A stretch of DNA of 64,000 bases from Pomacea canaliculata (Eukaryota; Mollusca; Gastropoda; Architaenioglossa; Ampullariidae), in NCBI RefSeq assembly GCF_003073045.1, contig NC_037600.1, positions 14,651,188-14,715,187 on the forward strand, written 5' to 3'. Positions 14,892-64,000 of this stretch are shown piece by piece (position 1 is the first letter of the stretch; the number at the start of each line of letters is the position of its first letter). A model generated the notes under the pieces. That model did not search any database. It saw nothing but the letters and a program-made list of their open reading frames with translations, and was not told where the DNA came from. Made by a program: the position numbers and the translations under genes.

Positions 14892-17089
14892 AGACAAGAA
14901 CAAGGCCAATCCAGTGACTCACCGATGACAAAGATAGTAACGCCTAAGTCCTTGAGTCTTTGAGCGCTAGCGACGGCGCTGGAGTGTCTGTCCGCTTTAC
15001 CGTCCGTCAGCAGCACTGCCACCTGGCGAATATGGATTTCAAACAATTCTTTAAATTAAAAAAACAAAATCTCCTTGCAGTTTATTCGCACACACCAATC
15101 AGTGCACGACAATTCTAAGTAGATGCTCAACTAAGTGTTGTCTCACCTGCAGCAACATCGGCATCTCTTATGGTCTTCCTCGTCGTCATTGTTTTTATCA
15201 TCGTTTTTTATCGTCGTCGTTGTCTCTCTATGCTTACTGTCGTAGTCCTTGCGAATATTGTCGTTATTGATGCTGGTGTTATCATTATCGGTGGAATTTT
15301 TTTCTCATAAATGTGTATATAAATGTATGACCACTCGACTTCAGGTGAAACATCTATCTTTCTATCTGCCACTATATTCCCGCACAAATGTCTACACAAT
15401 GTTATTATTCCTAAGGTTTTAGTACACGTCATCAAAACAGGAATCTATCTAGTTTTTTCTTTCCGCTCACCTTTGCCGAATTGGGGCGAACGCCATCTGC
15501 GGCGGTGAAGAGTTGCGAGGCAGCAAAGTCGAGGGCCTTGTCGGTGGCTGTGTTTCCCAGTTTCATCTGCACGCGACTGATGGCGTTCTTGACGGCCTCC
15601 TTGGAGCTGAAGTCGTTGAAATCAAACTGCAGCTTAAAACACAAAGAAGAGCAAACGAGTCACACCTCATCGCCGAGCATGGGGCATTTGGACTTGCACG
15701 ATCCATTTTTTTCTAACGATTGTCTAAAACCGTGTAATGTACTGTTTCCTCACGTCTGGATGAGTACCCACCCACTTCTGCACTTTGTGTGCAAATAAAC
15801 TTTCCAACCTCAGATATCAGACATTTATATCCATACACACCTTGAAAGGTGTGGAAGAATTAAATTATACACAATTAGCTGTTCACCCATACAATTTCCT
15901 AATATAAAGCTTGAATAAGTGTACTCCCCCATTGGCTGAGACCTTTACAGCATAAAGGGTTGTATCCATGTACAGCCCTGACGTGTATTTTGTTTACCTT
16001 TTTAGTGCACATACCTGGACATCTGAGCTGAAGGTCATGAATGCGATCTGGACCGAGTCCGGGGCGATGTTGAAAGTATCCACGACATTGGAAGCGAATG
16101 TCTTGGCACTCTCAAAATTCTCTGGACTCAAACTTGATGATGTGTCGACCACAAAGGCAAGGTCAATGTTGCTCGATCCGCATATTGTACCTGGGGAAAA
16201 CATGTAGACATGTCTTCTTAACTGTAGTCTACTAAGGTGAAAAGCATAGACATTAGTTCATTCTTAACTGTTTGAGGTGCGCATGAAAAACAATGTTAGA
16301 TTAACTGTAACTTGGAACTGTGTGGCTGCTAGAAGCAGACACGATACACCACCGACAAACTTTGAAAGACAGCAAATGCAGGAGATGAACAGTACTCACC
16401 ACTCTCCAGGCGATCGGACTGCTTAGTGTAGTTGTAGGCGGCGATGAGGTTCTGAGGATGGATGTTGCTCTGATACCACGCAGCCTGCTCCTCTTTGGAG
16501 ACGGGGATCGCTTGCCCGTTGAACTTCTGAGCGATGTACAGAGCGGTGGCCAGTCCAGAGTAGATCGGCTTGCGAAGCTGATCCCAGGTCAGTCTGTTCC
16601 AGTCGATGCCAAACCTCTGGGTGATGTCTTCGTAGAATCGAGACAGACGAGGGTCATTCTGCGTGTTCCGGAAGTCAGTCTCGCTGACCTGGTGAAAAAC
16701 GTGCCAAGAGGTTAAATATTTTGTATCATTAGAGTGGGATATGAAAACTCTGGGATCATTAAGCTTACACGTTAAAAAAAAAAAAAAAAAGAAAAAAAAT
16801 TCCCCTGCTGGCAAATAACTTGCAGAGGTGAACTTACCGCCCAGATGCCTCCGTTAAAACCAGCCCTGTAGGTGTTAGGGTCAAGACCGTCGTCAGTCTC
16901 GACGAATGCAAATCGTCTGAGCAGCAGGTGGTCGTTAGGGAAGACGCACGACTGACGGATGAGGCGCACCACGGCCTCCACAACCGCTGGACCTTTTCCT
17001 CCCTCTTGTTTTGTCAGGTCTTCCACCTGAGCCATCGTGAGCGCCGCCCACGTGACGACTATCGCTACACCGAGGTGGAGGCGACACAT
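11488..17089 (-). CDS. Array copy B: secreted lysozyme-like head + VWA + three chitin-binding domains
   Basis: Exons: 16838-17089, 16400-16688, 16015-16190, 15471-15632, 14923-15022, 14562-14693, 14354-14448, 13657-13900, 13049-13141, 12548-12774, 12137-12315 and 11488-11779. All have GT-AG borders and matching phases, giving 746 aa. A signal peptide is followed by the same lysozyme-like head as copy A, with F-A-F-V-E and G-G-I-W-A-V. The VWA metal site is D196-T-S-S-S, followed by L-L-T-D-G. After a beta-rich exon (P-T-Q-G-F-V-N-I-Y-G), a short cysteine-bearing exon leads to three peritrophin-type domains: N-P-C-T-P-G-H-P..., Y-N-P-C-T-A-E..., and N-C-T-Y-G-L.... The last two share the Y-I-Q-C core. 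The second domain is split by an intron in phase 2. The probable role is in an extracellular matrix that binds chitin, for example shell, operculum, radula or mucus. This is inferred from the domain set. Copy B appears to keep the ancestral layout from which copy A lost parts. Confidence 0.87.
12014..12079. repeat. ATT trinucleotide microsatellite
   Basis: About 20 near-perfect TTA/ATT units in an intron of copy B, between the exons at 11488-11779 and 12137-12315. Confidence 0.9.
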
Positions 17090-29000: not shown

Positions 29001-30023
29001 CATGAACTTGCAGACTGACTTTGACCAGTGTTAGTAGCATTGCACAAATATAACAATAGCAAGTTTGCTATAAGTCTATTTCCTGCGCTGGTCATGCCAA
29101 AATAATAGCAAGCAATACAATTTCGCCAAAAAAAATTTTACCTTTAAAAAAAGTTCACCACTATAGTTCATCGGTATGTGTATCCATTTCAGACTGGAAG
29201 CTGATAGTAACAGTCATTTCAATAAGCTCTTGAAGTTTGGGGTTTTCAGTCCCACAATCATGCCATTCATGGTAAAATCTATATTTCTCATTTATTTAGA
29301 ATACTGTTAGCAGACACAATCATGTGTCATGTAAAAACTTAATGAGCAATTAATATTTCACAGCGCGATACTGCGTTTTTTAAATGAATCATAAATCATT
29401 AATGGAAGAACATATATATTATATGCTTAAATTTAAAATACCTGGTGTGCTGACTATGGTTACTGTCAAGGCTGGTTATTACCACAGGAGTTCATGTGTG
29501 TGTTCTTCCTGTTTCATTGCTTGTTCTAATCTAACAATTCCCACTTAACATCCATTATACCACGAACTAATATCCGTCAGTGATTACACGTGTTAAGTGT
29601 TTCCATATTTAGATAATGCCTTTCCATTTACACTGTGTTTGAGGGGAAGTACAATACTGTCCGTCCCTTGCCTACATTTTCCATGATTTCTAAATTCTGC
29701 TGTAAACAAACACAGTTGAAAAAAATGTAAAAAAATGTTTTAAAAGTCAACAAACAAACAGTAAAAGTATGATCGCTACAATATTTATAGTTCCTTGAAA
29801 GCTCGAGATTCAAAAGTTCAATTAAGTTCTTCCTGGCAAAGGCGACTGTCTATACATAATAGAATGAAACCTAGTCCAGTAAAAGTCGTTCTCCCGTTGT
29901 TATTACACTTTTCACAAAGATATAATATGCAAACCGATCATATTCAAACTGAAACATAAAATATACAAATTTAACTGGCTGCTAGCTTGTCATATATATT
30001 AAATTGGACATCAGCTCGCAACT

Positions 30024-30095
30024 AGCAGAGTGGCGCAGTGGAAGCGTGCTGGGCCCATAACCCAGAGGTCCGTGGATCGAAACCACGCTCTGCTA
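30024..30095 (+). tRNA. Initiator tRNA-Met (CAU)
   Basis: 72 nt without intron, and it folds into a full cloverleaf. Initiator marks are an A1:U72 pair in the acceptor stem (AGCAGAG with CTCTGCT), three G:C pairs closing the anticodon stem (CUGGG-CCCAUAA-CCCAG), and a T-loop starting AUCGAAA in place of UUC. Compared with the vertebrate gene, the T-stem is CGUGG/CCACG instead of GAUGG/CCAUC, a compensated change. A T5 Pol III terminator follows at about 30099-30103. Confidence 0.97.
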
Positions 30096-30690
30096 ACATT
30101 TTTCTTGTTTTCCCCACGATTTTAATTCTAGTTTTGGAAACAAGTGCACATGACTCTATGAGCCTTATCTGCGTGGTACAATGGACATGATTTTTAAAAT
30201 TCAAACAAATAAACAAAATATTCCTGCCTAGATCATTAAAAGCGCATTTTGTTATCGAAACTCGTCCACGCCCAGCTCCCATCTGCGAAGCTCAATTTCC
30301 TGCTTTCAATGACATCGTACTCGATACCACTTCTGTAGCACTTAACTAGTCCCTTATTTTGTGAAAGCAAGAAAAAAAAATAAAACAATCAATGCTGAAT
30401 AACAATTCGAACAGGAAATTAAGGTCCTTGCAGCTATATACGAGCAACCACATTTCGCCTAGAAAACCACCCCTGTAGTTAAGAGAAACTACTTTTAAGA
30501 GAAAATTAGAGATTTAAAAAAGAAACCAATTAAGAAAGGAAAAGAAGAAGAAGAGAAGCAAGAGCAAATATCACGAAAGGTTAAATAAATGACGTAAGCG
30601 GCAGGTCATCACGGGTGATAAGGTGATAAGCGGCAGTCGTCTGCTCGTCAAACGAACACTGCAATCTTTCTGTGTCCAGCGCAAAACACG

Positions 30691-42070: not shown

Positions 42071-45000
42071 ATGAAAGCAATACGGGTGCATGAGTGGGGT
42101 GGCCCAGAGGTTCTCAAGCTAGAAAATGTACCAATTCCGATTCCGAAGGACACCGAGGTAAGTGAAATCTCTGGGGAGTGTAGGATACAGGTAGGATATA
42201 TGGGTATGCAGTATGCTCCTTCAAACCAACAGTTTCCATTATATTGACTCTCTATGGTTCATTTTGAAACATATAATCAGAAACCCTAATTTGACTTGGA
42301 GGATGCACAAGAAACTTTTAACTTTAAATAGTTAATGATAAACATTGATATAAATTGCTGCCTATAATTAATTTTGATTTAATCTTTATTTTAAGCAAAA
42401 TTGTGTCTTTACTGTAGGTTTTGTCATTACTTAGGCCCCTTCAATTATAGAAAAAAAAAATTTCTTATCTTTTAAAGTTGGTAGGTAGTGTTTTTGATCT
42501 CTGACCTGAAGATGACTAGCAGGGAAAATAACAGGCAGATCATATAAGGTCTTTGCCTGTCATGCCCAGGGCATGATGAATCACACTTCACTCTCTTACG
42601 GCAGTTAGTGTGTAATATATATTAAATATTACCTAGTGAATTAATGCAATGCACAATGCCTGTACATTTCCAGGTCTTGATCAAAGTAAAAGCATCAGGG
42701 GTGAACCCAGTTGACACCTACATCCGCAATGGAACATATGCACGTAAACCTAATCTTCCTTATATTCCTGGTTCTGATGCAGCCGGAATAGTTGAAGCAG
42801 TTGGCGAGAAAGTCACAAAATTCAAGGTACAGTGAAAAACCACAAACTTAGCAAAGCAAAAATTTATTTATGTCTCTGTTTATGTCTGGAATTAATTGCT
42901 AACATGCCACAATGTACACAGCTCAAAAATGATGTCATTAAAATTTCACAGTTGGTGCCACATCATCAGGACATATTGGACACATTAAAAGTTCCTGCCT
43001 CACAAAGAGAGAAACACACACTACATATTCATGCACTTTACATGTACCCCACTCCTATCAGTTCTTATATGTTTTTTTTTTGTTTGCTTTGTAACCAGAA
43101 AGGGGATAGAGCTTACTCTGTTCGTAGTGTATCAGGAGCTTACAGTGAATATGCAGTCTCAGATGCTCTTTTCACTGGTCATCTTGGAGACAAACTGACT
43201 TTCTCGCAAGGGGCAGCAGTTGGGGTGCCTTACTACACAGCTTATCGCTCATTGGTGCACACGTGAGCAAACTGTTGCATGAATATGTTTGGTCATACTG
43301 CTAAAAACTTGAATAAATATAAAAATTGTATTAGTTTCCTCTTGATCAGAATGACAAATGCAAAGTACAATGCTATAAAAGTAAAGTACCATATAAAACG
43401 CAAGTGAAAGATAACCTAGCAATGTTCATGAACAAGACTTATTTGTTATTGGTAGTATATTGGTTTATTCAATTAATAACGAAAGTGAACAGAGAATATG
43501 TTGAGGAAATGGGGCATTTTCCTTTTCAGAGCAAAAGTAAAGCCAGCAGAGACAGTGCTCATTCATGGAGCAAGTGGAGCAGTAAGATTCTTTTTATTGT
43601 TTCCTTATCTACCCTATGGTAACCATCTCTTTATTTAATTTTTTCTGCCTTTTTCTAGTCACACATGCAGATGTATAGATCTTCACAAAATGTTTAAGTT
43701 TTTCATAGTTCTTGCATCTTTTTCTGTATGCAGGATAATTTTCTTTTCCACATGTGCTTAATACCAAAAGACTTAAAAATGATACCAAAAAATATCTATT
43801 GCCAGGTAGGACTTGCTAGTGTTCAGATTGCAAAAGCCATGGGACTGCGTGTTCTTGGAACCGCTGGAACTCCAGAAGGACTGCAGCTGGTCAAAGACAA
43901 TGGAGCAGTGGAAGCCTTCAACCACCGAGAAGAAGGATATACTGAGAAGATTCTGGTAATGTTGTTCTTATTCTTTCAACTTTACAGTCTTTCACAAACC
44001 TTTTTTTTTATTGGGGGGTGATGTTGGTTGGTATGATGCTTGCTAGAAATGCATTTCTGATATTATATAAATATAGATAAATGTGTATTTAACTTAATGT
44101 TATAGTATAATATTCCTTTTTTTTCTAATTGAGTGATTAATCTTTTTTGCTGCACAGGAAGCAACAGAAGGTCAGGGTCCAGATGTCATCCTGGAGATGT
44201 TGTCTAACGTGAATCTCCAGCGTGACCTTGAAATAATCAAGCAAAAAGGACGCGTAGTGGTCAGTGCTGAAAGTTGGAGTTGTAAAAGGAATTTACAAAA
44301 TGACAGAGCAATTACTCTTTTTCTCATAATTCTACATCTTGCTAACTGAAAACAAGATGTTTTATTTCCCTATGGAGAAAACATCAAAATAAGAATCTCC
44401 TTAAAAAAAAATGGCTTTATACTGCCTTTTTCCCCAATGTGTACACACATGTTTACATTACAGTGAAAAATAATCATTATTGTCATTATTCTCTAATGCA
44501 TGCATGTTCCAGTATTTGAATAAAAGAGGAGATAAAACTGAATAAGTTTTCACTGGCAGGTGATTGGGTGCCGTGGTACCATTGAAATCAATCCTCGTCT
44601 CACGATGGCCAAGGAGAGTCAGATTCTTGGCATGATGTTGCCAGGTGCAACTGAAGTGAGTTTCAGATTTTCTCATAATTTTCACTTCAGTGTTGAGTGG
44701 TTTGTCTATTTTGATGATAAGGAAATGATTTACAGGTTTTCATACATTAAGAGAAAATGAAACAGACTAGATGTTTTCAGGAATACCTGTAAATGGATCT
44801 TCCAGTTTTGTTGTGACAGCAGAAGGGTGTGTGCATGTGTGTGTGCGCCTGCATAAAATTTCTTCTTTTCTGTCAAAATGCGCAAATTGATGTGAATGTG
44901 CCATGGCATAAAAATATTTTTCTTCTTAGCCTGAATGGCAGGAGATGCATGCCTATGTAGAGGCAGGCATGGAAATTGGATGGTTGCAGCCTCATGTGGG

Positions 45001-45091
45001 AAAGGAATATCCGCTGGAGCAAGCAGCACAAGCGCAAATTGATGTCATCAACAACTCTGGAACCCTTGGTAAACTGGTGCTAACTTTTTAA
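42071..45091 (+). CDS. CRYZ: Zeta-crystallin-type NADPH:quinone oxidoreductase
   Basis: Exons 42071-42157, 42674-42826, 43099-43262, 43530-43581, 43806-43955, 44158-44259, 44560-44655 and 44930-45091 give 321 aa with all phases consistent. It is a zinc-free medium-chain dehydrogenase/reductase that reduces quinones by one electron using NADPH, in the cytosol; vertebrate homologues also bind AU-rich mRNA. Seen here are [15 protein letters not shown] at the start, Y-I-R-N-G-T-Y near residue 45, the nucleotide-binding H-G-A-S-G-A-V-G-L-A-S at about 146-156, F-N-H-R-E, and G-T-I-E-I-N-P-R. An in-frame ATG at 42038 would add 11 residues. I chose 42071 because the family begins there and it has A at -3. 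Confidence 0.94.
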
Positions 45092-46245
45092 AGTTGAGGC
45101 TTATGAAGCTTTGTAATTGCCAGCATGACTCCAGGGCTGGTGCAAAAATTACCATTGTTCCAATCAGGTTGGACCATCAAGATTTTCTTTTTCTGGTTAT
45201 CTTTGTGCATGATTTAAAAAATCACCATCACATAGTATAGACTAATAAAATCAGCACTCCATTTGTTTCCTATCTGGCTGGATGGAGCTTTCTAAATATT
45301 GTTGTAATATTCTAACAGTGGAATAAGACTGCAATTGATGATAATATTTCTAAAGACAAAATTTATGTTACATATAAATCTTGCTTAGTTACCCAAGAAA
45401 AAGTGTTATCCATTTGAGTAGATTGTGTACTTGGCTGTACCAGATTATGTATGAATACAGAATTGTGTATTTGTTTGTTTTACTGTGTATAATGGGCCTT
45501 CATTATGGGCAACAATTTTTTGTTGTTGTTTTTTTTTGGTTTTTTTTTTGGGGGGGAACAGGGTTATGATGGTGATGATGTGTGGTTTGAATGACAAATT
45601 TTAGTTAATTCTGTGCAGTTCTGCTGTGTAGACATTGAGAGCAACAATGCAGTAAGACTTTTTTTTAATGGACTAGAGGCATTCTTATTAGATGAAAGAA
45701 TGATTTCCTCAATTATGTTTTGATATTACCAAGTTATATATATGATGGTACTTTATTTCATTTAATATAGATATTAGTTAAGGGTTATTCTGTGATTGAT
45801 CAGGATTATATGTCTGCATGGGGTGGGGTCTACATAAACAGATGTTATTGTGCTAGAGTTTCAGCTTTTAATCAATGTGAAAAAAAATTATTTAGTTTCT
45901 TAAAATAGAATTGTTAATAAAATGCATTACTAGCAGATACGTGATAGTCCTTATGTAAATTCCTGCAAGCATAATAAGCAGTTTTGTAAACCACAGTATC
46001 AAAGGATGACAAGATATTTTTTCAAGCATCTAAATATTTCTTATCTTTGATTCACTTGCTGCATTGCAGCTTCGCTTCACAGTCATGTAGAAGATTTATC
46101 TTCCTGAAGAAATCTAGTCGAAACATACGACAAATTTATGTAATGTGACTAATTTGCAAGTGTTTAATGGGTGACATTGTGAGAAATCTAGTGCTAAAGA
46201 GTTGTGAGAGAATAATGATTTATATGATTAAACAACTGTTTGGAT

Positions 46246-46715: not shown

Positions 46716-47043
46716 TTTTTTTTTTTTATTATTTTTTTTTTTTTTAGGCCCTTTCACCCCTCCTGGGGCATAGGCCATCGACTACAGTCTTAACTGTTGT
46801 CGATGTTTCGGTAGCAAGGATTTGTTTTACGGGGTGGGGGTGCTGGCCCCACGCCCAACCCTCCTCCTTTTTCAGCCGGGCTTGGGACCGTCCTTGGCGG
46901 AGGGCGGCCAGCCCTGTAAACAGATGCCACGTGCAGAGAAAGAACAGCGTGCCCGAGACGAGAAATGAACTCAGGGCAGCCAACCTTCACTGTATTGGTG
47001 ACAGGCGCTAACAGCGTTAACCGTTGCGCCACCGGGCCGCTTT
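46716..47043 (-). mobile_element. Full-length tRNA-derived SINE, copy a, with 13-bp target duplication
   Basis: Read on the minus strand from 47040 it starts GCGGCCCGGTGGCGCAACGG, which holds an A-box, followed by a B-box-like GAGTTCATTTCTC. A body of about 290 bp follows and it ends in an A-rich tail at 46716-46745. The flanking repeats TTTATATGTATAT are exact at 46703-46715 and 47044-47056. The head is shared with the other two copies but the 3' half is different. The intact duplication suggests a fairly young insertion. Confidence 0.9.
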
Positions 47044-47139
47044 TTTATATGTATATAACTTCAGACAAATCATTCATGGTTGCCATGGTGACATCCATTT
47101 GATGACCCTTATATCTCCTGTATGTTGACCGTCGGTCTT

Positions 47140-47812: not shown

Positions 47813-48520
47813 TTAATCACGTTTTTGCTGAATGGGTGGAAGAGGGACGAACACTTTCGCCTTCAGGGGGCGCTTGAGTTCCTTCTGCGGTAGGAGGTAG
47901 ATCTGCGGCAATTTGGCGAACGCCGCTGTGCCCCTTTTGTCCTTCTTGAACCTTGAACGTTCACCCGGCTTGCCCTTTGGCCGCTTTTTGACCTCCAACG
48001 TTTGACCCCTTTCCACCTCGCAGTGCTTATCGTTGTCGTGACATTTGTTCCCGTCCTTGACCTTTATATCCACCTTCAGCTCGATCGTCGGTCCATCGTC
48101 AGTTTCTACCACCGTCGGGTCAGTCGTTGCATCCGACTGTTCTGCAGCGGCAGGGGAGTTCAAGGACGTGGCGGTGGGGCTCCTCCAGCGAACGACCTTG
48201 CGCTCGCGTCCTTGACCTAACCCCAACGACTCGATCTTCTGCTGGCAAGCAATGGGCCTCCGCAATCGCTCCACCAGCTCGCGGACTTTCTCTGCCGTGA
48301 ACCGGTCGAAAGCTGGAGCGCGCGGGAGGCCCACCTGGTAGGCCGGGTAGTAGTCGTAGAACCTGGGTGGATACCGCTCCTCCAGCGTCACGGGCACGAA
48401 CTGGGACGTCCTTCCATGCTGCCTGGGTGCAGGGATAAACGCCGGCCTCGGACGGACAGAGTAGATGTGCCGGATATTCCAGTTAGTCAGCCTGTTGAAC
48501 GAGATTCCCAGGTCCGCCAT
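47813..48520 (-). CDS. NIRH(I/V)Y-family protein C, with lysine-rich tail
   Basis: One exon, 235 aa. I do not recognise the family. The head (about 1-100) has N-W-N-I-R-H-I-Y-S near residue 14, then G-L-P-R-A-P-A-F and V-R-E-L-V-E-R-L-R-R-P. The paralogues at 52534 and 58422 share these in the same order. The tail is acidic around residues 135-150 and then strongly basic (E-V-K-K-R-P-K-G-K-P), so it may bind nucleic acid, tubulin or sit in the nucleus; that is speculation. An ATG 12 codons upstream (48556) is also open. I chose 48520 because the paralogues begin with M-A followed by the same motif and it lies in a good initiation context (GGACATGG). It is on the opposite strand to the other two copies. 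Confidence 0.7.
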   Translation of the reverse strand: MADLGISFNRLTNWNIRHIYSVRPRPAFIPAPRQHGRTSQFVPVTLEERYPPRFYDYYPAYQVGLPRAPAFDRFTAEKVRELVERLRRPIACQQKIESLGLGQGRERKVVRWRSPTATSLNSPAAAEQSDATTDPTVVETDDGPTIELKVDIKVKDGNKCHDNDKHCEVERGQTLEVKKRPKGKPGERSRFKKDKRGTAAFAKLPQIYLLPQKELKRPLKAKVFVPLPPIQQKRD

Positions 48521-51500
48521 GTCCTTTTGGCACCCAGGTGATTGAATAAAGTTCAAACTTGCCCAAACTTTCCGCTTTATTAACGGTTAATTTAACAAGT
48601 GCCAGCAACATTCGTTAGTCCCAGGTAGGTCTGCACGTAACACAACAAGTCATCATGGACAACACAGAGTCTGTTGAGGGTCGGGAAGGGAGGTAGAGGA
48701 GTGAACGAACAAGATATCTGACTCACTTGTGTGATATGTAAGATTCCTCGAACTTGGATAGCTAATTAGTTGTTGTTTTTTTGTTTTTTTTGTCTCAACT
48801 GGCGCACACTGAGTCAAAGTCTGTGAACACAGTCTGTTCTCCCTGTGTTGTAGTCAGGTGTCGTTGTTACCCGGACACAGAAAGGCTGTCCACGATCTTT
48901 TCATAACAAAATCCTGTCGGCGCCAGGAAGACAATGTTATGGTCGATACATGGTTACTTCACGGTGTCCAGTTTCCTGAACCAGGAATTTTGCATCGATC
49001 TTCCTCGCCATCCATCGAGGGGTGGGATGTCGGCATTGTCAGTGCCTAGCGAGTGTGCCTGCCGGCTGATGCGTTGCAGATGCGATGATCGAGAAATCGC
49101 CAAACGGTCCGCCGATCTGTGACGTCATTGTCATGCGCTGTCGTCGTCGTCGTCGTCGTCCCGGCTATGAGGACGCTGATGTCATCTTGGAGTTGACTGT
49201 CTTTTGTGCCCACATATTTCTGCGATGAAACGCTCTTCAAAAATAATTAAATAATAACTGTTGAGCAAGTGGACGACTTGACTTGTCATTCGAAGCTCAG
49301 GGTTGTTTCTCCTGAATAAATATGTAAATGTATTGAAAGCCAAACCATCGAAAGAAAATGAGCGAACGTTAGTGTGGCTTTCTTGTGTCTGTCGTCCTTT
49401 TAATCCCGCCCTTCGAGACGGACACTTCAAGTGAACGACGGCCTTGCGCGCGCAAAGCTGGCCGGGTGCCGTGCCGGTTATATCTCCCCCGGGTGGGACC
49501 TACGTCAACTTCTCAACTTTTTAATCACCTGTGGGGTTATCAAGAACCTGACGTGCCTTTCGCAGTATGCACATTGACCAAAAAAAAAAAAATGCACCGA
49601 GAGACAAAAAATAAATAAATAAATAAATAAATAGTGCTGTTGAGTGAGCTAACAATGCACTTCGGTTTGTTACAAATATTATATCAGTTGAGAATACTCC
49701 TTGCCTTGAACCAAGGTAAGCAGGTCTGTCTGTTTCATGGGGCTTTTGTCACATCTGTATACTTCGTAAACTTCTCTGCTATACAAAATATATACTCAAA
49801 ATAAACATGACATATAGACTAAAGCATAACAAATATGCAGGGGGCACCATAGCACAGCATCACCTCGTGGCCAGGTGGAAACGATTTTAAACACTTTGTG
49901 TGAAGCTGTGTTTTAATTGAATGGCTGTCAATTCTTTGCCTCAAAGAAACATTCATGAACACGATGGTAGTCTTAGAAAGTTCATGGAGCAAAATTAAAG
50001 ACAATCTCGTAAAGCGAAATGTCAGAAAACCAGAATAGACTACAAAAACATATTTTACAGTATAGAGAAGATCTTTAACATGATCAAATAAACTTCTGGA
50101 AGTGAAGAAAAGACAACTGTATGTCTCGTTTCGATATCTATGTATATATTGCTTTGGGAACAGGAATAGCTTTTTGTGTATTTTTATTCTGGTTTCTTAT
50201 TCATGAAGGAAATAAAGACATACTATAAAGTCATAGACTTCATATTAAGAAAACAAACTTTCTTACAACAACGAATCATTGTCCATTGGGGTTAGCATAG
50301 CCAATCCCTCTAAAAGAAAGTATTTCAATGGTGTGTTCAATATAAGTGTCAATCAGTCCGTTCGACAATCGTAAAGTGTGAAGTTGGCATCAATAATCAC
50401 CTTGTTATTAGGCGACGAGCAAAGTCAGCACGCATGCACAAAGACTTGGAAAACATTTTTTACAGAAGTGAACTCCTGAAAAGGTTTTGCTATTCATAAA
50501 TCAGTATGTTGAGAAGGAAACTCAGCGGTGATTAAGCCCACCTGAAAGTCGGCGAGACCGTTAATCACACCCACATTGAGCAAAGACCCGACAGGTAGCG
50601 TGGGCTGATAACTGCACTGTTTGAACTACCCCAGCAGACACCCGTCTACAGATTATTGTGTAAACACACAGGACAACACGGGGACTACGATTAGATTATC
50701 TTTTTCAGTGTTTACAGCCGACGAAGGGGGGCGGGCAGCACCGAACAGATCGAAGTAAATGAAGTGCTTTCACTGCTCAAAATCTTCACCTTTGCCCTTT
50801 ACCATTCGGAAAGTTTGACCCTGGAAAAATTTAACTTTTTTCCACAGGCGTTATCAAATTTCGTGGTGACGAAGGTATGGAGGACTAAAAGGAGCTGATA
50901 GAGGGAAAAGAAACAGCCTGTGACTAAGGTAGCACATGCTGGAGGCTTAAACTTTGCCAGGAGCTGTCAACATAACAAGCAGGTGACCTCCCAGCTGCTC
51001 AACTGAATCTTAGCAAGCGAGAACGGTGCTTTTTGGCGGACAAAGTAAGTACTATAATGCTTTCGAAAAATAATAAAGAAGGTTAGAAAGCATTTTTTAA
51101 ATCTTTTTTCTTCTAAGAACTTTACTTCTTAAAATAAAAATTGCTGTTATCGTTCATTTTAAGTTTTGTATGTGAAGCCTCCATTGTTCCGTCCAAAGCT
51201 GTTTGTTATAAAGTCGCTCGAAAGCTTGACTATTTCGCAAAAATAATTTGTTTTTTTAACTTATGCACAACTAAAGTTACTGAATGACCCAGAGGATGAG
51301 ACCAGAGCAATATCAGTTCCTTTATTTCTGCACGCTTGTTTTCACAAATGTAAAGTATATATAAAACTCGCGATTGGTACACAAATGTTGCACCCCGGCA
51401 ACTGGTAAGAGGAGTTAACAATTACAAGAGAAATATGTGAAGGGATCTGCGAGACGAAGTCGAATCAGCTCGAATGTGGGAGTCTCCTGGTTTTGGTAGG

Positions 51501-52533
51501 GCCTACGGGGACGCAGTGGACAGACCCTGACAGAAACGTGGGGAGTGGGGGTCCAAGGACAGTAACCTACCTGTCCATGGTAGGATCGAATCTCGCCACC
51601 ATCGCACGTCGTCGGGCGTGGCACCTGCTACACAGACTAGAGCTATGTGAAATAGCAATGACAATGATCAACTTTATTGATATTGATGATTGATATTGTG
51701 ATATTGCTTATGCCAGCATTGAATAAATTCTGTAAAAGACAAATACGAACGAGGAAAAAGATTGTTCCTTTAATCAAAGATATATTTATTACGTATTCTA
51801 ATATAATATATTTCTGCATCCTCTGTCTTGTCCAGGGGCAGGTCCGTTAACATTTTTCATCCCTCTTACCCATTCATACTTCTACTGACCCAGGTCATAT
51901 CAGCTTTTCAATGAGGTTTATTTCTTCTAAATCTTTTAAAAACTACCTTAAATCATCGACGACATTATGCTGTTCATTCTGTTTGTTAAGGCTCTAGATG
52001 CATGCAGGTTTGTTTTTTGTTGTTTTTTTGTTTTGTTTTAATAACTGGGTAAAGTTCAGCACAAGATATTTTTTCTCGGAATTTAGTCCTCATTTGATCC
52101 TTCTTGAGATACACATTTAATTGCTTTAAACATTATCATGCGGAAAGAGATCAAAGTCTTGACTTTGTACATAGTGAGCTGTCCATTGGCTGTAAAATTC
52201 GAAACATAAACATGATGTAGTAGTAGTAACAAGATTGACTTACATAGCTCCATATCTCGGTCCTATGGGCGACTCGTGGCGCTTTTTTAAAAAGTCTTTA
52301 TGTACAATGATAACGTCAGTGTTTGAAACCTCTGAATTCTGCTCATGGGAATGTTTCAAACGTGTATCGAGAACGGAAATAGAATAATTACCCCAATTTA
52401 GGGAAAGTATCTTTCATACCCAATCATCAGAAAAAAACGTTCAGTGATTATTATCAGTGATATGGTACTGAGTTACAGCAAACTCCAGATGTATAGAAGA
52501 ATTGTCTTCAGCGTAAGTTGTGTCTTCATATAG
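48521..52533. other. Spacer between family members C and D
   Basis: No gene supported. A GTC trinucleotide run lies at 49141-49160 and AAAT repeats at 49609-49633. A GC-richer stretch at 51430-51625 has a tRNA-like motif (GATTCGATCC on the minus strand near 51584-51593) and may be a degraded SINE. Nothing else stands out. Confidence 0.4.
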
Positions 52534-53892
52534 ATGGCCTTCAGCGTGTCGTATCACGATCTGCTCGACAAAAATATCCGCCACATCTACAGCAGCCTTC
52601 CCTCCAACATCCGGTTCCGGTCTGAGCCCATCCCAGGGGTGACTTTGAACCCTCATCATGGCTGCCTGTCTCTTCACAGCCATCAGAACCTTCAGCAGAG
52701 TCGAGTCCCGGCGCTCCTACGTCGTCGCCTCTGGGCCTACAGTCAGGACTACGGGGTCACCCTCCCCCGAGCACCTGCCTTTAGGCTCATGTCTACTAAT
52801 GAGGTCAAGGCTATCGTTGATAGGTCAGTCTCAACTAAAGACGCAAGAGAGAGAGAGAAAGAAAAACTCGGATGATATATAAGATGCAACCTAATCCAGA
52901 ACTTGTCATTGGTGGCAGGATATTTAAGTTTTCATTTTTGTCTGGAAAGTCAATTTACCCCCAAAAAGAACATAAAAAGCAAAAGAAACCCATTAAGAAC
53001 AAGCATTTTTTTAAAGTAAAAAAATATAAAGAAACAAATAATAACAGAATGTTATGAACAAAAAAAAAAAATAAAGAACGTAACAAATAAAGAGTGTAAA
53101 GAAAAAAATACACAAAATTATTTTTAAATGTAACAACCAGAAAACAGTAATACAAAAAAATATAAAAGAATGTAACGAGCAAAGAAAATGAAAGGCGCAA
53201 AAAGTAGAAAATTGTTAGTATTATTTCCAATTTTACAATATCTAAACGCATTTCACGCACTGTAGTGGAATTGCATATATAACTGCAAAGAATAATAAGC
53301 ATTTTATATGTGTAAGCCTGTGTGAAGTATGTGTGTGTCTGAATGTCTGGGGGAATGGTCAGTTAACTTCTTGGTATATGAAGCCACGTGTTCAGGTTTT
53401 GAATCTGTGCGTGTGGCGGATGTCGTCGAGTGCGCTCTCGAAAAGAAATTTATTGCTACTGCCTTTTGTTCCTTGGACTACTGGATAACTCGTACTTTCA
53501 CTTTCCCAGGATCGACGCCCTTGTCCTGTTACCTGACTGCTGACGACTTGCCAAAGAAAAGTTTATCAAAGGACTCGGCCCTGATGTTATGATTTATGTT
53601 TATTACCAGGGTCAGCAAGCCGACGAACAGCCAGCAACGCCCCCTGTGCGTGTGTCGTCGCGAGATGCTGCGGCAGCACTGGGAGAGGTGTCCGTCCTGC
53701 CACGCAGCCAGCCACGGACGCCGCTGCAGCAGCAAGCAGGAGATGTCGGACCTGACGGCCCGCGTGTCACGCCCCACACACTCCGCGCGCGTGCGCTATG
53801 AACTCAGGGAAGGTCACACCACTGACCCTGTCCAAGTCGTGCTCGCCCGGTGCACTTCCTGTCGAGAGGCTGCTGGTGCCGACAACTGGTAG
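52534..53892 (+). CDS. NIRH(I/V)Y-family protein D, two exons, cysteine-rich tail
   Basis: Exon 1 52534-52823 and exon 2 53610-53892 join in phase 2 (donor GATAG/GTCAGT, acceptor TTACCAG/GGTC) to give 190 aa. The join is supported by the paralogues: it produces V-K-A-I-V-D-R-V-S-K-P-T, in line with V-R-E-L-V-E-R-L-R-R-P in C and V-D-D-I-V-K-R-L-Y-E-P in E. The head carries K-N-I-R-H-I-Y-S-S near residue 14 and L-P-R-A-P-A-F near 82. The tail has C-x-C-x11-C-x2-C and a later C-T-S-C, which could bind zinc (inference). Neither paralogue has these cysteines, nor an intron at this point. I do not know its function. Confidence 0.7.
52940..53220. repeat. A-rich degenerate repeat in the intron of gene D
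   Basis: Irregular repetitions of an A-rich unit like AAAGAATGTAACGAGCAAAG fill much of the intron. The long minus-strand reading frame over it is a by-product of this composition. Confidence 0.6.
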
Positions 53893-54999
53893 CTCGCCCA
53901 AGAAAACTGTTGTTTTAGAGTTTTTTAATCATTTAAAAAAGGACAGTTATTTTTATAATTTATATTGTCATTAAACGATTCTGCTCAGCATTTTTCGGTA
54001 AAGATCATTGTTTTATATCTCAGATGTACACTACATTGCATCATCGCGACAATCGTCATTCGTTATCATCATGGCGGTCGTTGTCGAACGATTAATCACC
54101 TTCATTTAGAAATATGACCGTGATATGCAGCTATATGCAGGCTATTTCCGACCCTCGTTTGAGAGCGCGCGCGCACACACACACGCACAGAATTTCAGTT
54201 CCATGCATGCACGAAAGTTCTGCCGAATCGCATCGTCTTAGACGAGTATCGTGCGTGTAATGCAAGGATATGGATATGAACACAGTACATGACATGTGCC
54301 TCGTGCAGTCCATTGCTACATAAACGGTTGATTTGAAAGACAACTTTCCTACAGTGATTTCACACCACGAAGGTGCAAGAAGACTTAGGGGGCGGAATGG
54401 TAGGGTTACTGAACATGTGCTGCATGCAGAACAGAATACTATTCCAATACTATGGCAGACAAGTGTTCACCGCTGCAAAGTCGATCCCACTCACCTCTCA
54501 CCCCCTTTCTGTTCAAAGCCAAACCGCAAAGCACCTTTAACTCGCGCCAAAAGGCGTGAACAAGAACCGACAACCCCCACTGATTATTGCGAATAAGGAA
54601 TTGAACTTTGTGTAATCAGTATTAACCTGTCTGTCTGTGATTTCTAGTCGTTCGAAGAGCGTGTGGCTCTGTTCCTAAACAATGATTTATGACATACCCC
54701 CTTCCTTCACCGCCTCCATCCGCCACCGATAAGGTGCTGCCTGGCATTGGGTTCAACATGTGCTGACGATGCAGTTCACCCGTACTGCCAGGCCTCAGCA
54801 GGCACGTGATCACCTGGCTAGGGGTACAGTATGTAGCTTCCGTGTAAAATGTCGGCTAGAAAAATAATTGCGAGAAGTAAAATTTTTAGTTGTTCCTCTG
54901 TTAAGTATTTGTCTTATTTGGTTAGAATAATAAAACTGCTGGGACGAAAAAGAAAGTGTCATACTGTCATGTAGCTATGACTGTACTTTGTTGTAAGCA

Positions 55000-55150
55000 A
55001 ACACCCTGATCACTCTCAAAACAAGCAACACCCTGATCACTCTCAAAAAACACACACACACACACACTGATCACTATCTCAAAACACACACACACACCCT
55101 GATCACTCTCAACACACACACACAGTGATCACTGTCTCAAAACACAAATG
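55000..55150. repeat. CA-rich minisatellite
   Basis: Five or so units built from TGATCACT(C/A)TCTCAAAA plus a CA run of varying length, in direct orientation. Confidence 0.85.
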
Positions 55151-55954
55151 CAAAGAGAGACACACCTGCAAAGAAACAACATGCACCTCGTTTTATGATT
55201 CTTAAACCATTTTTTGAAGCTTGGTACCTTTGTGTCCTGCTTGGATTCGACCCAACTTGAAGAAGGAAGATATTATATTGCAAAGGCATGACTGGTACGA
55301 GGAACTAAGATATTATCAGTAGGTTAAAAAAAAAAAAGAGAGAGGGGGGGGGTTGTCTTGAAGGCGACACTTTTTTCTGTAGTTACTACCCGCACCACCT
55401 GGCCTGTCTTCTGCTTGTCGCTCCAGGTTGTCGCCAGTTTGTGAGCACTGTGACTGCTTGAGTGACTGCTTGAACACCTGCAGATGGCGAGTATATCATT
55501 TTGTAATCTCTCCTCTCTTCTGTCCACTGTTCACCGGTATGACTTCATTACAAGTTACTCTCTAAGTGTCAGTTACTTTTCTTTCCGCCTTTTTCCTCCC
55601 AGGCCTGTACATTGAAAAGTTACACTATTACAAGCACCGGGTTCATCGTACATCACTTGTATAAAAGAATTACTCTGATTAAATGATTGCTTAAGTCCTG
55701 ACATTGAAATTCCTGTGAGTTTCACTGAGTGGATGAGCCCAGTGATCATGTTTAATGTCGAAAAAACTAAGTATGAACATTCATACAACAAAAATCGTGT
55801 GGTTGATCCTGATCTTATGTCTGAGTGACATACCTGGACAGATCTCACCTGTGTGATGTACATTCTTTGGCAGGTCTCACCTTTAGGAAGTAACATGTTC
55901 AGGTATATCTCATCTACATTATTTACATCAGGTAAATTTCCTATACATTATTTT

Positions 55955-56165
55955 AATAATAATGTTTATTTATAGAGCGCCTTATCCAACCAACAATGGC
56001 TTACTCAAGGCGCTTACATACACGAAGTTGCATGAATGCACACTTACCAGTAGACATCAAATGTGTCTGACAAAATTCATATAACATCATTAAAATCACA
56101 ACTACTTACTCAATCCCTCTAGTTTTAACCACTGCGCCCTTAGGTACTCGGGTCGGTATCGAACA
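55955..56165 (-). mobile_element. SINE of the GCGCT-tail type
   Basis: On the minus strand it reads GGGCGCAGTGGTTAAAAC (A-box-like) near its start. It ends AAGGCGCTCTATAAATAAA followed by an ATT-rich tail. This tail type is common among invertebrate SINEs. No clear target duplication was found. Confidence 0.6.
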
Positions 56166-56235
56166 CCCTATTTACATGAACAGGTAATTATCATATTTAC
56201 ATGCTTCGAGTAGATCTCTAGCGTATATTTGCATG

Positions 56236-56492
56236 CAGGGCCGTGCTTAGGGGCAAGCGGACGAGGCATCTGCCTTGGGCCCCGCGCTTCAAGGGGCCCC
56301 GCGCTTTTGATTGATATGGTAACTAGGCATATGGAAGTGTAGTCAGCCGTATCACATTCTCGCTGGACGCGCTTGGAGACAGAAGGCTGCTGGACACCGA
56401 GGATTTATCGCGCATGAACGTTCGTGCATTGAGCGTGAGGGCCCCGCACATGCCCTTTGCCTCGGGCCCCGCGGGGGCTAAGAACGGGCCTG
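56236..56492. mobile_element. hAT-type MITE with 8-bp target duplication
   Basis: 257 bp, with no coding capacity. The terminal inverted repeats are CAGGGCCGTGCTTAGGGGC on the left and, reverse-complemented from the right end, CAGGCCCGTTCTTAGCCCC. It is flanked by an exact 8-bp repeat TTTGCATG at 56228-56235 and 56493-56500, the target size of hAT transposons. It is GC-rich with runs of GGGCCCCGCG inside both ends. It would need a transposase from elsewhere. Confidence 0.88.
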
Positions 56493-58421
56493 TTTGCATG
56501 CACAGGTAAACTTCATGCACGTTATTTACATGCTCAGGCAGATCTCGTATGTACTATTTAAATGCTCAGGTAGATATCATCATACTCACTGTTTATACAT
56601 GTATCTCATATACACTTCGTTTAGGTAGATTTTGTCTAAGCGATTTACATGCTCGGGTAGGTCTCATCTACATGATTTACATACTCAAGAAAAAGCACCC
56701 AGCGCTCAGACCTCTGTACACCTGTTTCTACACTCAAATAATAGTACAGTATCGTCATTGTCATTCACGGTCTGTTAGGTAGTGCAAGCAATCGTCACCT
56801 GTACATGTCTGTTACACGTCTTACTTAGTCCAGCATTCACACACCTGACATAAAAGACTGCCGTAGGTAAAGACTTCGCTCTACACTTTGCCGGGCGTCA
56901 GGTGATAAAAAAATAGAAGAAGAAAATCCTACTTGACATTATGGCAAGTTAGGAAGACTACTGGAAGCCTTACACACAAAGAAAATTAAAATACCGTGAC
57001 CTCCATTCTACCGTTTATTTCTGTGCCCATTCCAAGTTCTCAAAGGAAAGCGAGTTGCTGTGCCCTCTTGGTTTTCTTATTGTAAGGTGACATGGCACGA
57101 CTGCTGTAAAAGCAATGAAAAGTTAAGTGGCTCGCCGTTTCTAGAGCATGGCATACATGTGACAGATTCCAAACCCCGCCTCCGCTGTTTTCGTCGTCGT
57201 ATACCTTCCCAGACTGCTGCTGGGGGAACAAGTAGAGGAATATTTCTAGTCGCAGGACATGATAAGCCTCCAACTGCCGACTTTCTATTTCACAGTCGAG
57301 CACACCAATTGTTATTATTATTGTTGTTGGTAGTGGTATTGGTGGTGGTCTTTAGTGGAGGATAAAATAGAACTGTTGTCAAACCAATGCCCCCACCAAT
57401 AAATAAATGAAAGAATGAAAAAGTGGGAGGTAACGAGGGCGATAAATCAAACTCTCTATCGTCCTTGGACGTAACAGTCGCCGTTGTTTAACGTGACAGT
57501 TACTCTGATAAGGACGTCGTGTCATGCACCTTTCAAGTTTCCTCCCTTAGAGACGTAGCCACTGACCTACGGGGTGGCGGCGCCATTTAACCTCTCGTGA
57601 CGATAAAGCCGGCTTCACATGCTGAAACTCGGTGTGGTTACGAACTGCACGTCCGTCGCATAAATTTGCCTTAACTTCAGTCGAAACTGGACCACGTATT
57701 TGTACAGAGCAAGCTTTATTCTTCGAAATCTACCTCCCCAACACCTGGTCCCCGCGAGGAGAGTTATATGTGGGAGAAAAATCTTTCGATGCATACTGAA
57801 ACGGTCGTGTTGTTAGACTATGTTGTACAGTGTGAAGCAGGCTATTGTAAGGAACAACATTTACAACGCTGTAGCTGCTGTAGTCGCCAAGTCACAGCCA
57901 TTCTTACCTCAGCAATAGACACCAGGGTAAATTATATACCTTGGGTAAATATTCACACGAGACATCTCCACCCCTACCGATACACTGACTACTCACATTT
58001 TATTGACCGCATTTAATTGTAGTATGCTCTGTCTGAGGAGTTCTACAGGAAATCTTTCTGAAACTAACAGGAATATGAATGGGCAAAGATGAAATGGAAG
58101 CGAAATACCAGAATTTATTAACCGTTGCACGGATCGAGAGAAAACGAAAATGAACGAAATGAAAGTTAACCCAGCTTTTCCTTTTTTCCAGAATAAATCG
58201 CAGGAGATGGGCGTCAGCCGGTAGATGATGGTCTTGTTCTTGTGTCACGATATCCCTTGTCCCGGCGTCAAACCTGACAGTTGTTAGATCGCGAGCAGAC
58301 GACAAGTATCGCACCTTCAAACGTCACCACGCGTGAAGCTGGTGCCGCCCTCCCCTGCCTTCTACTACAACTCTTCTCAACTTTTACACCATCCTTCCAG
58401 ACTATTCGCTGGCCAGCAAAA

Positions 58422-58910
58422 ATGGCGTTCAATCTCACCTACCACAACATTCTGAACAACAACATCCGGCATGTCTACTACGGCAAGCCTCTTAATCTAC
58501 ACTACCGACAGTCCAGCGAGTATCCCAACATGGATCAGCTTCGCAAACGGCGCGAGGATCAGCTGCTGAAGAACTACGTCCTGCGCATGTCGGAGTTCTG
58601 GTCGGACTACCATTGCCTCATCCCACGCGCTTCCGCTTTCCGGGTCCTGTCGCGCCACCTGGTAGACGACATCGTCAAGCGCTTGTATGAGCCGCCGCCC
58701 ACGAACACCTCCAGAAGCATCGAGGCGAGGAAGAGCCGAGAGAAGGGGTCAGAGGTCAAAAGGAAGACCCTGTCGAGGGAGCAGAGGGACGAGGTCTTCA
58801 AGCGGGTATTGAGGCCTACGGCTATCAGCACGATACGAGAGCATCCGCCACAACGTCTGGTGGCAATGGGGCTGAACTTCGAGTATGTGAAGGATGACAC
58901 CGACGTCTGA
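58422..58910 (+). CDS. NIRH(I/V)Y-family protein E
   Basis: One exon, 162 aa, basic. The head has N-N-N-I-R-H-V-Y-Y near residue 12, I-P-R-A-S-A-F-R near 67 and V-D-D-I-V-K-R-L-Y-E-P-P-P-T near 80. The tail has a second, similar piece, R-D-E-V-F-K-R-V-L-R-P-T-A-I-S, then ends L-N-F-E-Y-V-K-D-D-T-D-V. The ATG at 58422 lies in a good context (CAAAATGGCG) and aligns with the starts of C and D. The frame stays open upstream to 58281, but that part has no matching sequence in the paralogues. I know of no named family with this motif set. A small structural or filament-associated protein would fit, but that is a guess. Confidence 0.72.
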   Translation: MAFNLTYHNILNNNIRHVYYGKPLNLHYRQSSEYPNMDQLRKRREDQLLKNYVLRMSEFWSDYHCLIPRASAFRVLSRHLVDDIVKRLYEPPPTNTSRSIEARKSREKGSEVKRKTLSREQRDEVFKRVLRPTAISTIREHPPQRLVAMGLNFEYVKDDTDV

Positions 58911-62000: not shown

Positions 62001-64000
62001 TTGATAGGCACATTTACGACATTGATGAGTGTCCGAATTTTGTTCCAAAGATTCTGGACTGAAGTATGGCAAAAATGTGTGATGTACAATGCACCCTAGC
62101 TTACTTTAATGAGACTGACAATGGACACAACAGGATACAAATTCAAAAGGGTCAATAAGGCTTATAAGCTATTATCATGGAAGAACCAGTTTTTAAGGGC
62201 ATTTACATTGTTCCATTCTAATAGCCTGAAATAAAAATGTGCAAAAAGATGGGCAAATCACAAATGAAGAAGAAAAGAAAATCTCATCAGGCCTCTGAAT
62301 GGAAAACAAACAGTACAATGTTTGGAAACACAATATGGCGTTTTATCATCTGTTGTTGACAAATTATCACACATGGGGAAACACATCGAAATCAAAAGCT
62401 CCTTTTCGGTTAAAACATGATTAATGCAACAAAATTTAAGATTTATTACACCATGTGTTTTAACTACAAAATTCAAAAAACAAGAAATGTGGTTGAAAAT
62501 ATTACAACTACTCTCTTGTGTAAAAGGTCTTATGCTTCTGACAACTGGAGACATAAAACATATTTACTGTTTAAGGGTCATTACTTTCCCCTACAATCCT
62601 TCAGCCTTTGCGATATTCCATATCAAATGTACAAAGCAACATCTTTCAACAAACTGAAAAGCAAAGGAAAAAGAAAGAAAACAAATCCAATAAAGCTTGC
62701 TCTGACAACTTGTAATACAAGCAACTAGTATAGCAAGCTCTTTTGCTACATAAGCAGAGGCATATATGAAAAATGAAATTTTTTTCTCTCTGCATCTCTT
62801 GCTCTTTCTTCTTTTTTCCCCCAGTGTCAAAGTTGTGCCAAAACAGTAACCAACGATGGATTCTGACCACCAAAAGAAATACCCACATTCAAAATACTAC
62901 AAGCAGAAAAAATTGCCTCCTACAAAAAAAACCAAAACAATCAAGAACATAAGCCAGACATTTTAGTCTCAACTTCAACAACTGAAGACTTAAAAAGCAG
63001 TCAGGAACCTAAGGTGTTTCAGCTTCATATCAGACACCTAAAAAGCAGTCAGGAGGGGGAAGGGATTGATGTTTTATGCTGAGATAGCAACTAAGGCTAT
63101 ATCACGGCAAGGCAGCCAGGCCTGTAAACACATGCCACATAGAGAAAGAACAGCGTGCCCCAGACAAGAGCTGATCCCAGGACTGCCAACCTTCACTGTA
63201 TTGGTGATAGGCACAGCTTCACATCAGACACCTAAAGACCTGAAGAGTAGTCAGGAATGTCACCCATGATTCACTGGATTTTACCAGAGATACGAAGAAG
63301 ACCTAAGGGGGACATGTCGACAAGCTTCAGTTTACCAGCCAGTTTAACCCACAAGTCTGGATTTCCACCACCCAGGAAGTACATAAAAGAGGGGGACCTA
63401 TCATTAACAGGGAAACAGATCAAAACACATCTTATTCAATCTTCCATGGATCTCCCAGAAGTACATAACAAAGCTACCTCTGCTCGTGGCCCAAATGATG
63501 TTGTGTGACTATTTGGAGGAAAGAAGTCATCATCAAACAAACAGCCATGATTTATTGCAGACAACCTATTCGTAGAAACTTGCCCTGCTCAAGTGATATC
63601 TTTGCACAACAGTGTCATTTCTATACTGCGTATCTTGTTTCAAGAAGGTTCTCTGCATGTGACACCTGTGCACAGGCCTGGGTATTAGGTTTTTTTCATG
63701 GCACTTGATTTTTTTTTTTGTTGTAAACACCTCTTACCCCATAGTTAATTAATTAACTTCTTTCATTCTTCCTTTCCCCCCAGAAAATCATGATTCTGAA
63801 GTTTCACAAAATTGTAAAAGGTCTTAATATTTGCAATGGAGACGAAAAAAATTTATAAACAAGCCTTTTTGGTTATGAGTTGGTATCAAAAATAAGTTTC
63901 AATTTACTGGGCAAAAGACCTCTGGATCTTTTTCGTTCTTTACAGCTTTGCATTATATTCTCAAGTATGAAAATACACAATATTCATGGTTGTCTCATGG
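59100..64000. other. AT-rich region without recognisable coding sequence; possible 3' UTR of a gene to the right
   Basis: An AT run lies at 59203-59218. A minus-strand AATAAA at 59933-59938 could end a transcript coming from beyond the right edge, and the next 4 kb has the even, AT-rich texture of long 3' UTRs. No exon can be supported. The plus-strand frames at 63066-63708 have no recognisable domain, and the first overlaps a SINE. Confidence 0.35.
63040..63213 (-). mobile_element. tRNA-derived SINE, copy c, 5'-truncated, with 20-bp target duplication
   Basis: The head begins inside the SINE at TGCCTATCACCAATACAG (minus strand) and the tail matches copy b (GATATAGCCTTAGTTGC). The flanking repeats at 63020-63039 and 63214-63233 are 20 bp and differ at one base (on the plus strand CAGCTTCA, then T or C, then ATCAGACACCT). 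The missing 5' end is normal for target-primed insertion. Confidence 0.85.

What the first reader, a model, noticed from the sequence alone, without database searches (positions are those of the whole stretch)
47813..58910. Three paralogues of an unrecognised family with an N-I-R-H-(I/V)-Y head
Within 11 kb, genes C, D and E share a start of M-A-x-x-x-(S/T)-(F/Y), then N-I-R-H-(I/V)-Y at residues 12-20, P-R-A-(P/S)-A-F about 50-60 residues later, and (L/I)-V-x-R-(L/V)-x-x-P about 15 residues after that. The tails are unrelated: lysine-rich, cysteine-rich, and a repeat of the last motif. Order and spacing are kept although overall sequence is not. That points to selection on the head as a docking module with interchangeable tails. 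I cannot name the family.
Basis: partly seen in the sequence, partly recalled or inferred. Interest (0 to 1): 0.75.

Follow-up and report, generated by a model that had tools for sequence, protein, structure and literature searches.

The report
Three tandem snail genes, unnamed family
Three neighbouring genes in what is probably an apple snail genome are true relatives that make small, basic proteins matching no family in the libraries searched; they are real but look like an ordinary small local gene family of unproven job, perhaps in cilia or sperm tails.

Summary
C (minus strand), D (two exons) and E (both plus) are homologous: leave-one-out profiles score them 38.0, 61.4 and 41.4 bits, against at most 12.0 bits for 20,000 shuffles of each. 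NIRH(I/V)Y, PRA(P/S)AF and (I/L)VxR(L/V)xxP occur in order in all three, the last two exactly 16 residues apart. No fourth member was found in the 440-Mb assembly by searches that can miss distant or intron-split copies.

One part is wrong. The tails are not all unrelated: D and E each carry a second, significant copy of an (S/T)x9R(L/V)xxP unit. Only C has a tail of its own.

Pfam, NCBIfam and solved-structure sequences give only chance-level rows. Exons of two ciliary proteins from the same genome do find solved relatives, so an obvious orthologue of a known doublet-microtubule protein is unlikely. AlphaFold2 gave no usable fold (pLDDT 44.7 and 40.1).

Best guess: extended, basic, motif-bearing structural proteins, perhaps axonemal. 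Function is unproven and interest moderate to low.

The parts
47813..48520 (-). gene C coding sequence, 235 aa, one open frame, lysine/arginine-rich tail
   Evidence: pI 10.0
48461..48478 (-). NIRHIY motif of C (residues 15-20)
48254..48298 (-). single (S/T)x9R(L/V)xxP unit of C (residues 75-89)
   Evidence: AlphaFold2 helix 76-87 at low confidence
52534..52823 (+). gene D exon 1 (head: NIRHIY at 52573-52590, PRAPAF at 52765-52782, start of first unit at 52792)
   Evidence: the longer frame to 52875 reads into the intron
52824..53609 (+). intron of D, 786 bp, donor AG|GTCAGT, acceptor TTACCAG|GG
   Evidence: inferred from sequence, no RNA evidence
53610..53892 (+). gene D exon 2 (end of first unit, cysteine-rich link, second unit, stop)
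   Evidence: second unit
53731..53775 (+). second unit of D (residues 138-152, followed by T-H-S)
   Evidence: 0 of 5000 shuffles reach the match to the first unit
58422..58910 (+). gene E coding sequence, 162 aa, one open frame; a polypyrimidine-AG just upstream suggests a non-coding first exon (by eye)
   Evidence: AATAAA 184 bases past the stop
58650..58694 (+). first unit of E (residues 77-91)
   Evidence: low-confidence helix 78-89
58773..58817 (+). second unit of E (residues 118-132, followed by T)
   Evidence: 0 of 5000; low-confidence helix 119-129

Best explanation
C, D and E are old tandem duplicates (one inverted) encoding small, basic, probably soluble and intracellular proteins. 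They show no large globular domain and are built from conserved short segments on a perhaps mostly extended chain: an N-terminal stretch ending in NIRH(I/V)Y, a PRA(P/S)AF segment, then one (C) or two (D, E) units of (S/T)x9R(L/V)xxP, probably a capped helix followed by a proline turn. The mechanism I think most likely is a structural one: the chain lies along a repetitive polymer and each short segment contacts a subunit, as small microtubule-associated and microtubule-inner proteins of cilia and sperm flagella do (general picture recalled). Shown: homology, motif architecture, basic charge, lack of a membrane-like segment by hydropathy, no relative above chance in the libraries searched. Inferred: extended fold, polymer binding, cilium or sperm location.
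For: Homology: leave-one-out profiles and BLASTP. Repeated unit in D and E. pI 10.0, 10.0, 9.86; net charge +18, +13, +10 and no 19-residue window above 0.46 on the Kyte-Doolittle scale. Low-confidence models with only short helices at the motif places plus one longer helix (37-62) in E and two short strands in C. Silent sites are saturated while the residues are kept: among identical residues with degenerate codons the codon differs in 37 of 51 (D-E), 32 of 50 (C-D) and 19 of 33 (C-E), against 32.0, 31.3 and 19.8 expected from the genes' own codon use, which speaks for long purifying selection on the protein. Found only at this locus.
Against: Nothing here ties the genes to cilia. No match above chance to any solved chain, although exons of two ciliary proteins of this genome do match solved chains. 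No strict RFX X-box lies upstream of C, D or E; the one strict match in the window (47079-47092) is on the 3' side of C. Loose matches (up to 3 mismatches, spacer 0-2) number 11 in the window against 8 in the reversed control; two of them lie 1.1-1.4 kb upstream of C (49867) and D (51387), which is chance level. No shared promoter word beyond chance (2 eight-letter words, one word and its complement, against 1.24 expected; none of nine or ten letters). Low pLDDT from a three-row alignment says little about true disorder.
Confidence: 0.35

Rival explanations
1. One reading: the head (about residues 1-100) is a docking module and the tails are interchangeable effectors.
For: The C tail is unrelated to the others (tail E-tail C reached by 1293 of 5000 shuffles, tail D-tail C by 2401 of 5000), while the head is kept in all three.
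Against: The D and E tails are related (6 of 5000) and repeat a unit that begins in the head. The head itself shows no confident fold.
Confidence: 0.15
2. Nucleic-acid-binding or spermatid chromatin proteins: the basic chains bind DNA or RNA.
For: pI about 10 and 18-20% Lys+Arg in C and E, 15% in D. The weak, non-significant solved-structure rows include ribosomal proteins (L19e 0.35, eL14 0.5, bL28 0.76).
Against: Those E-values are chance level, and other rows of the same kind are a methylthiotransferase, PACSIN2 and a designed protein. The conserved residues are not only basic but a fixed order of aromatic, proline and helix motifs.
Confidence: 0.15
3. A widespread animal family already present in public proteomes as uncharacterized proteins, perhaps with a diverged vertebrate orthologue, that simply lacks a Pfam model and a solved structure. 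This does not exclude the best explanation.
For: No library here holds animal proteomes, so this was never tested; many short ciliary and testis proteins lack models (recalled).
Against: Pfam-A gives only Deltaretro_Tax 0.12 and zf_Tbcl 2.5, both chance level (HMMER's filters drop most matches above about 0.1).
Confidence: 0.3
4. Chance open frames or decayed copies, not genes.
For: No RNA evidence was available. D needs an inferred intron; no close polyadenylation signal was found for C (AATAAA only 1086 bases past the stop).
Against: Homology far beyond shuffles, silent-site saturation with kept residues, canonical splice sites, ATGG starts, and polyadenylation signals 78 and 184 bases past the stops of D and E.
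Confidence: 0.03

Closest known systems
THEG / SPMAP2 repeat proteins (Pfam PF14912), sperm microtubule-associated (role recalled)
   Same: Short repeated units ending in a basic-proline step (by eye). The genome has real THEG exons elsewhere (8 matches at E up to 1 on two contigs, 7 over the cut-off).
   Different: C, D and E give no PF14912 row in hmmscan (filters drop most matches above about 0.1), and the genome search with PF14912 lists none of them. The unit differs by eye.
Ciliary microtubule inner proteins in general, for example CIMIP1 / LLC1 (PF14945)
   Same: Small and basic, without a large globular domain (general picture of the class recalled).
   Different: No sequence match above chance to any solved chain, whereas an LLC1 exon of this genome matches solved CIMIP1 at 1.3e-6.

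Membership tests
THEG repeat family (PF14912) | profile match to the THEG repeat | tested here: not met
   no row for any of the three members; the family's 8 genome matches lie on other contigs
microtubule inner proteins of doublet microtubules | sequence relative among solved chains | tested here: not met
   single and profile searches of PDB sequences, nothing below E 0.35; 2 of 2 positive controls met it
microtubule inner proteins of doublet microtubules | location in the microtubule lumen of cilia or flagella | not testable with these tools
   needs cryo-EM or tagging
ciliary genes under RFX control (X-box consensus recalled) | X-box near the promoter | tested here: inconclusive
   the single strict match in 64 kb is 3' of C; loose matches (11 against 8 in the control) include 49867 upstream of C and 51387 upstream of D
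C-D-E family itself | NIRH(I/V)Y, PRA(P/S)AF and, 16 residues later, (I/L)VxR(L/V)xxP | tested here: met
   3 of 3; 3 of 29 NIRH-type sites in the genome have PRAxAF or PRAxxF in the same open frame
docking head with unrelated tails | tails without homology | tested here: not met
   D and E tails are related and repeated; the C tail is unrelated

The most novel reading that the evidence does not exclude
An unnamed, possibly mollusc-restricted family of axonemal or microtubule-lumen proteins that spread by local duplication, built of a NIRH(I/V)Y-PRAxAF anchor plus a variable number of (S/T)x9R(L/V)xxP units, each unit contacting one polymer subunit.
Probability: 0.25. Interest if true: 0.5.

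Novelty: new member of a known kind. Interest (0 to 1): 0.3.

Why it matters
If axonemal, it would add a family to the lineage-specific part of the ciliary parts list, and the motifs give a ready profile to look for it in other molluscs. If not, it is one more small local family without a name, which is common in animal genomes (recalled).

Tried and rejected
Prokaryote and virus collections: the head profile (A2) found no relative in viral contigs (80 stretches matched a pattern, none confirmed) or genome contigs (117 matched, none confirmed). This is expected for an animal family and says nothing about animals.

Structures: AlphaFold2 of E (mean pLDDT 44.7) and C (40.1) with three-row alignments; too poor for a fold search, so none was run. 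The D row of both alignments was the exon-1 frame 52534-52872, whose last 16 residues are intron read-through; the same frame was the D query. Spliced D was not handed to the structure tool because of its stated rule.

Papers: motif letters NIRHIY, NIRHVY, LPRAPAF, LPRASAF anywhere in the text: 0 papers. Searches on the snail genome and on mollusc or gastropod sperm and microtubule inner proteins were seen as listings with abstract starts only; none of what was seen mentions this family. Passages were seen of PMC6129957 and PMC8595878; the latter gave nothing of use.

A second, degenerate unit in the tail of C was suspected by eye; the shuffle test does not support it (2372 of 5000). A strict X-box or a word shared by the three promoters was not found. 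More copies in the window and 30 kb to its right were not found: with the family profile the best other frames have E 1.3, with the unit profile the best frame outside the three genes has E 0.15. With the C+E profile a window frame at about 37.8 kb reached E 0.023 (10.5 bits); it was not followed and does not stand out. Remembered human ciliary proteins were considered without result; no such memory is used as evidence.

Full report
Where it is. The window lies at 14651188-14715187 of contig 11 of a 440,159,624-base, 24-contig genome. The size fits the apple snail Pomacea canaliculata, whose published assembly is 440,071,717 bases with 14 chromosomes (passages of PMC6129957). The paper gives 27.2 Mb for the shortest of its 14 scaffolds while contig 11 is 24,344,826 bases, so the species is probable, not proven.

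The genes. C is one open frame on the minus strand (47813-48520, 235 aa). D has two exons, 52534-52823 and 53610-53892 (190 aa), split by a 786-bp GT-AG intron. E is one open frame (58422-58910, 162 aa). The starts read ATGG in all three, and polyadenylation signals lie 78 and 184 bases past the stops of D and E; for C the only AATAAA or ATTAAA in the 1116 bases checked is 1086 bases away. There is no RNA evidence. The D intron is inferred from splice signals and from the joined exons completing the third motif. With the C+E profile, whole D scores 61.4 bits and its exon-1 frame alone 52.7; the exon-2 frame alone is not among the five best window frames.

Are they relatives? Yes. With a profile of the other two, C, D and E score 38.0, 61.4 and 41.4 bits; the best of 20,000 shuffles of each scores 11.8, 10.8 and 12.0. 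Against 1309 reading frames of the window the left-out member's frame is found at 1.3e-10, 3.1e-15 and 1.2e-11; the best non-member frame in the three searches has E 0.023. In the whole genome, E finds D at 7.3e-6 and C at 0.59, exon 1 of D finds E at 5.0e-6 and C at 0.058, and C finds D at 0.076 and E at 0.56; so C is the distant member. The other rows at E up to 10 were one for E (6.73) and one for D (0.63); these two were not examined further. That tool scores only its best candidates, so distant or split copies could be missed. The degenerate DNA pattern for NIRH(I/V)Y (its letters also admit serine for arginine) has 29 matches in the genome, fewer than its backward control (53); 3 of 29 are followed in the same open frame by PRAxAF or PRAxxF, and these are C, D and E. 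A profile of the three finds nothing else significant in the window plus 30 kb to its right. The left flank was not read.

Selection. Where two members share a residue with more than one codon, the codon differs in 37 of 51 (D-E), 32 of 50 (C-D) and 19 of 33 (C-E) cases; unlinked codon choice from the genes' own usage would give 32.0, 31.3 and 19.8. The duplications are therefore old and the shared residues have been kept by selection on the protein.

Anatomy. The distance from PRA to (I/L)V is 16 in all three, while NIRH to PRA is 51, 64 and 54. The third motif belongs to a unit, (S/T)x9R(L/V)xxP, which occurs once in C and twice each in D and E with the same internal spacing. The match of the first unit to the protein's own tail is reached by 0 of 5000 shuffles in D and in E. 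The tails of D and E match each other (6 of 5000), but first unit against the other's tail is weak (E to D 115 of 2000, D to E 259 of 2000; C to D 216 and C to E 202 of 2000). C's long tail matches neither tail (1293 and 2401 of 5000) nor its own first unit (2372 of 5000). So the picture of one head with three unrelated tails holds for C only. All three are basic (pI 10.0, 10.0, 9.86) with no hydrophobic segment like a membrane helix.

Known families. Pfam-A gives two chance-level rows (0.12 and 2.5) and NCBIfam two (0.4 and 2.8). Solved-structure sequences give nothing below E 0.35 by single proteins or by profiles. As a control, a THEG exon of the same genome finds solved THEG-like chains at 5.1e-20 and 9.2e-13, and an LLC1 exon finds solved CIMIP1 at 1.3e-6. 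That these chains come from mammalian and sea-urchin doublet microtubules is recalled, not shown by the calls. The search would thus probably have shown an orthologue of a well-conserved doublet protein. Two controls are few, and a fast-evolving relative could still be missed.

Structure. AlphaFold2 with three rows gave mean pLDDT 44.7 for E and 40.1 for C (E helices 7-14, 37-62, 78-89, 119-129; C helices 8-18, 76-87 and strands 136-140, 143-147). The unit helices start just after the S/T of each unit. With so shallow an alignment this is weak evidence; no fold search was made.

Neighbours. A zeta-crystallin-like quinone oxidoreductase gene on the plus strand (ADH_N 5.7e-15; ADH_zinc_N 6.2e-10) ends, by eye, near 45.1 kb and is convergent with C. 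To the right of the window, frames look like DDAH (6.3e-4, below the cut-off). These give no functional hint.

Reading. The safe statement is a real, old, local three-gene family of small basic proteins with a motif architecture that no library used here names. The mechanistic guess, short contacts along an extended chain on a polymer such as the axonemal microtubule, rests on general resemblance and is marked as inference (0.35). The lack of a solved relative despite working controls counts against it, and the promoter scan is inconclusive.

Noticed in passing
42626-45100, + strand: Exons of a zeta-crystallin-like quinone oxidoreductase (ADH_N 5.7e-15 at 42626-42835, ADH_zinc_N 6.2e-10 at 43698-44021; extent by eye), convergent with gene C.
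   Followed up: partly
4554-4937 and 12533-12871, - strand: Frames with a VWA match (3e-5) and a sub-threshold chitin-binding CBM_14 match (0.0017). Frames 3117-3539 and 13637-14014, and 6925-7308 and 16329-16814, resemble each other in pairs by eye, suggesting a tandem duplication of a shell-matrix-like gene; Pfam gives nothing for three of these four and LCCL 0.044 for 3117-3539.
   Followed up: partly
47079-47092: RFX X-box-like palindrome GTTGCCATGGTGAC, the only strict match in the window, about 720 bases past the stop of C.
   Followed up: no
46790-47045 (-) and about 63060-63220 (+): Two copies, by eye, of what looks like one interspersed repeat, perhaps tRNA-derived.
   Followed up: no
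30023-30097, + strand: A tRNA-Met gene (CAT) called by ARAGORN; not checked against tRNA-derived repeats.
   Followed up: no
L053:6146-8380 (-) and L055:2269-3087 (+): Right of the window: DDAH-like exons (ADI 9.3e-4 and DDAH_eukar 6.3e-4, both below cut-off) and, by eye, the start of a kinesin-like gene (no Pfam match for that frame).
   Followed up: partly
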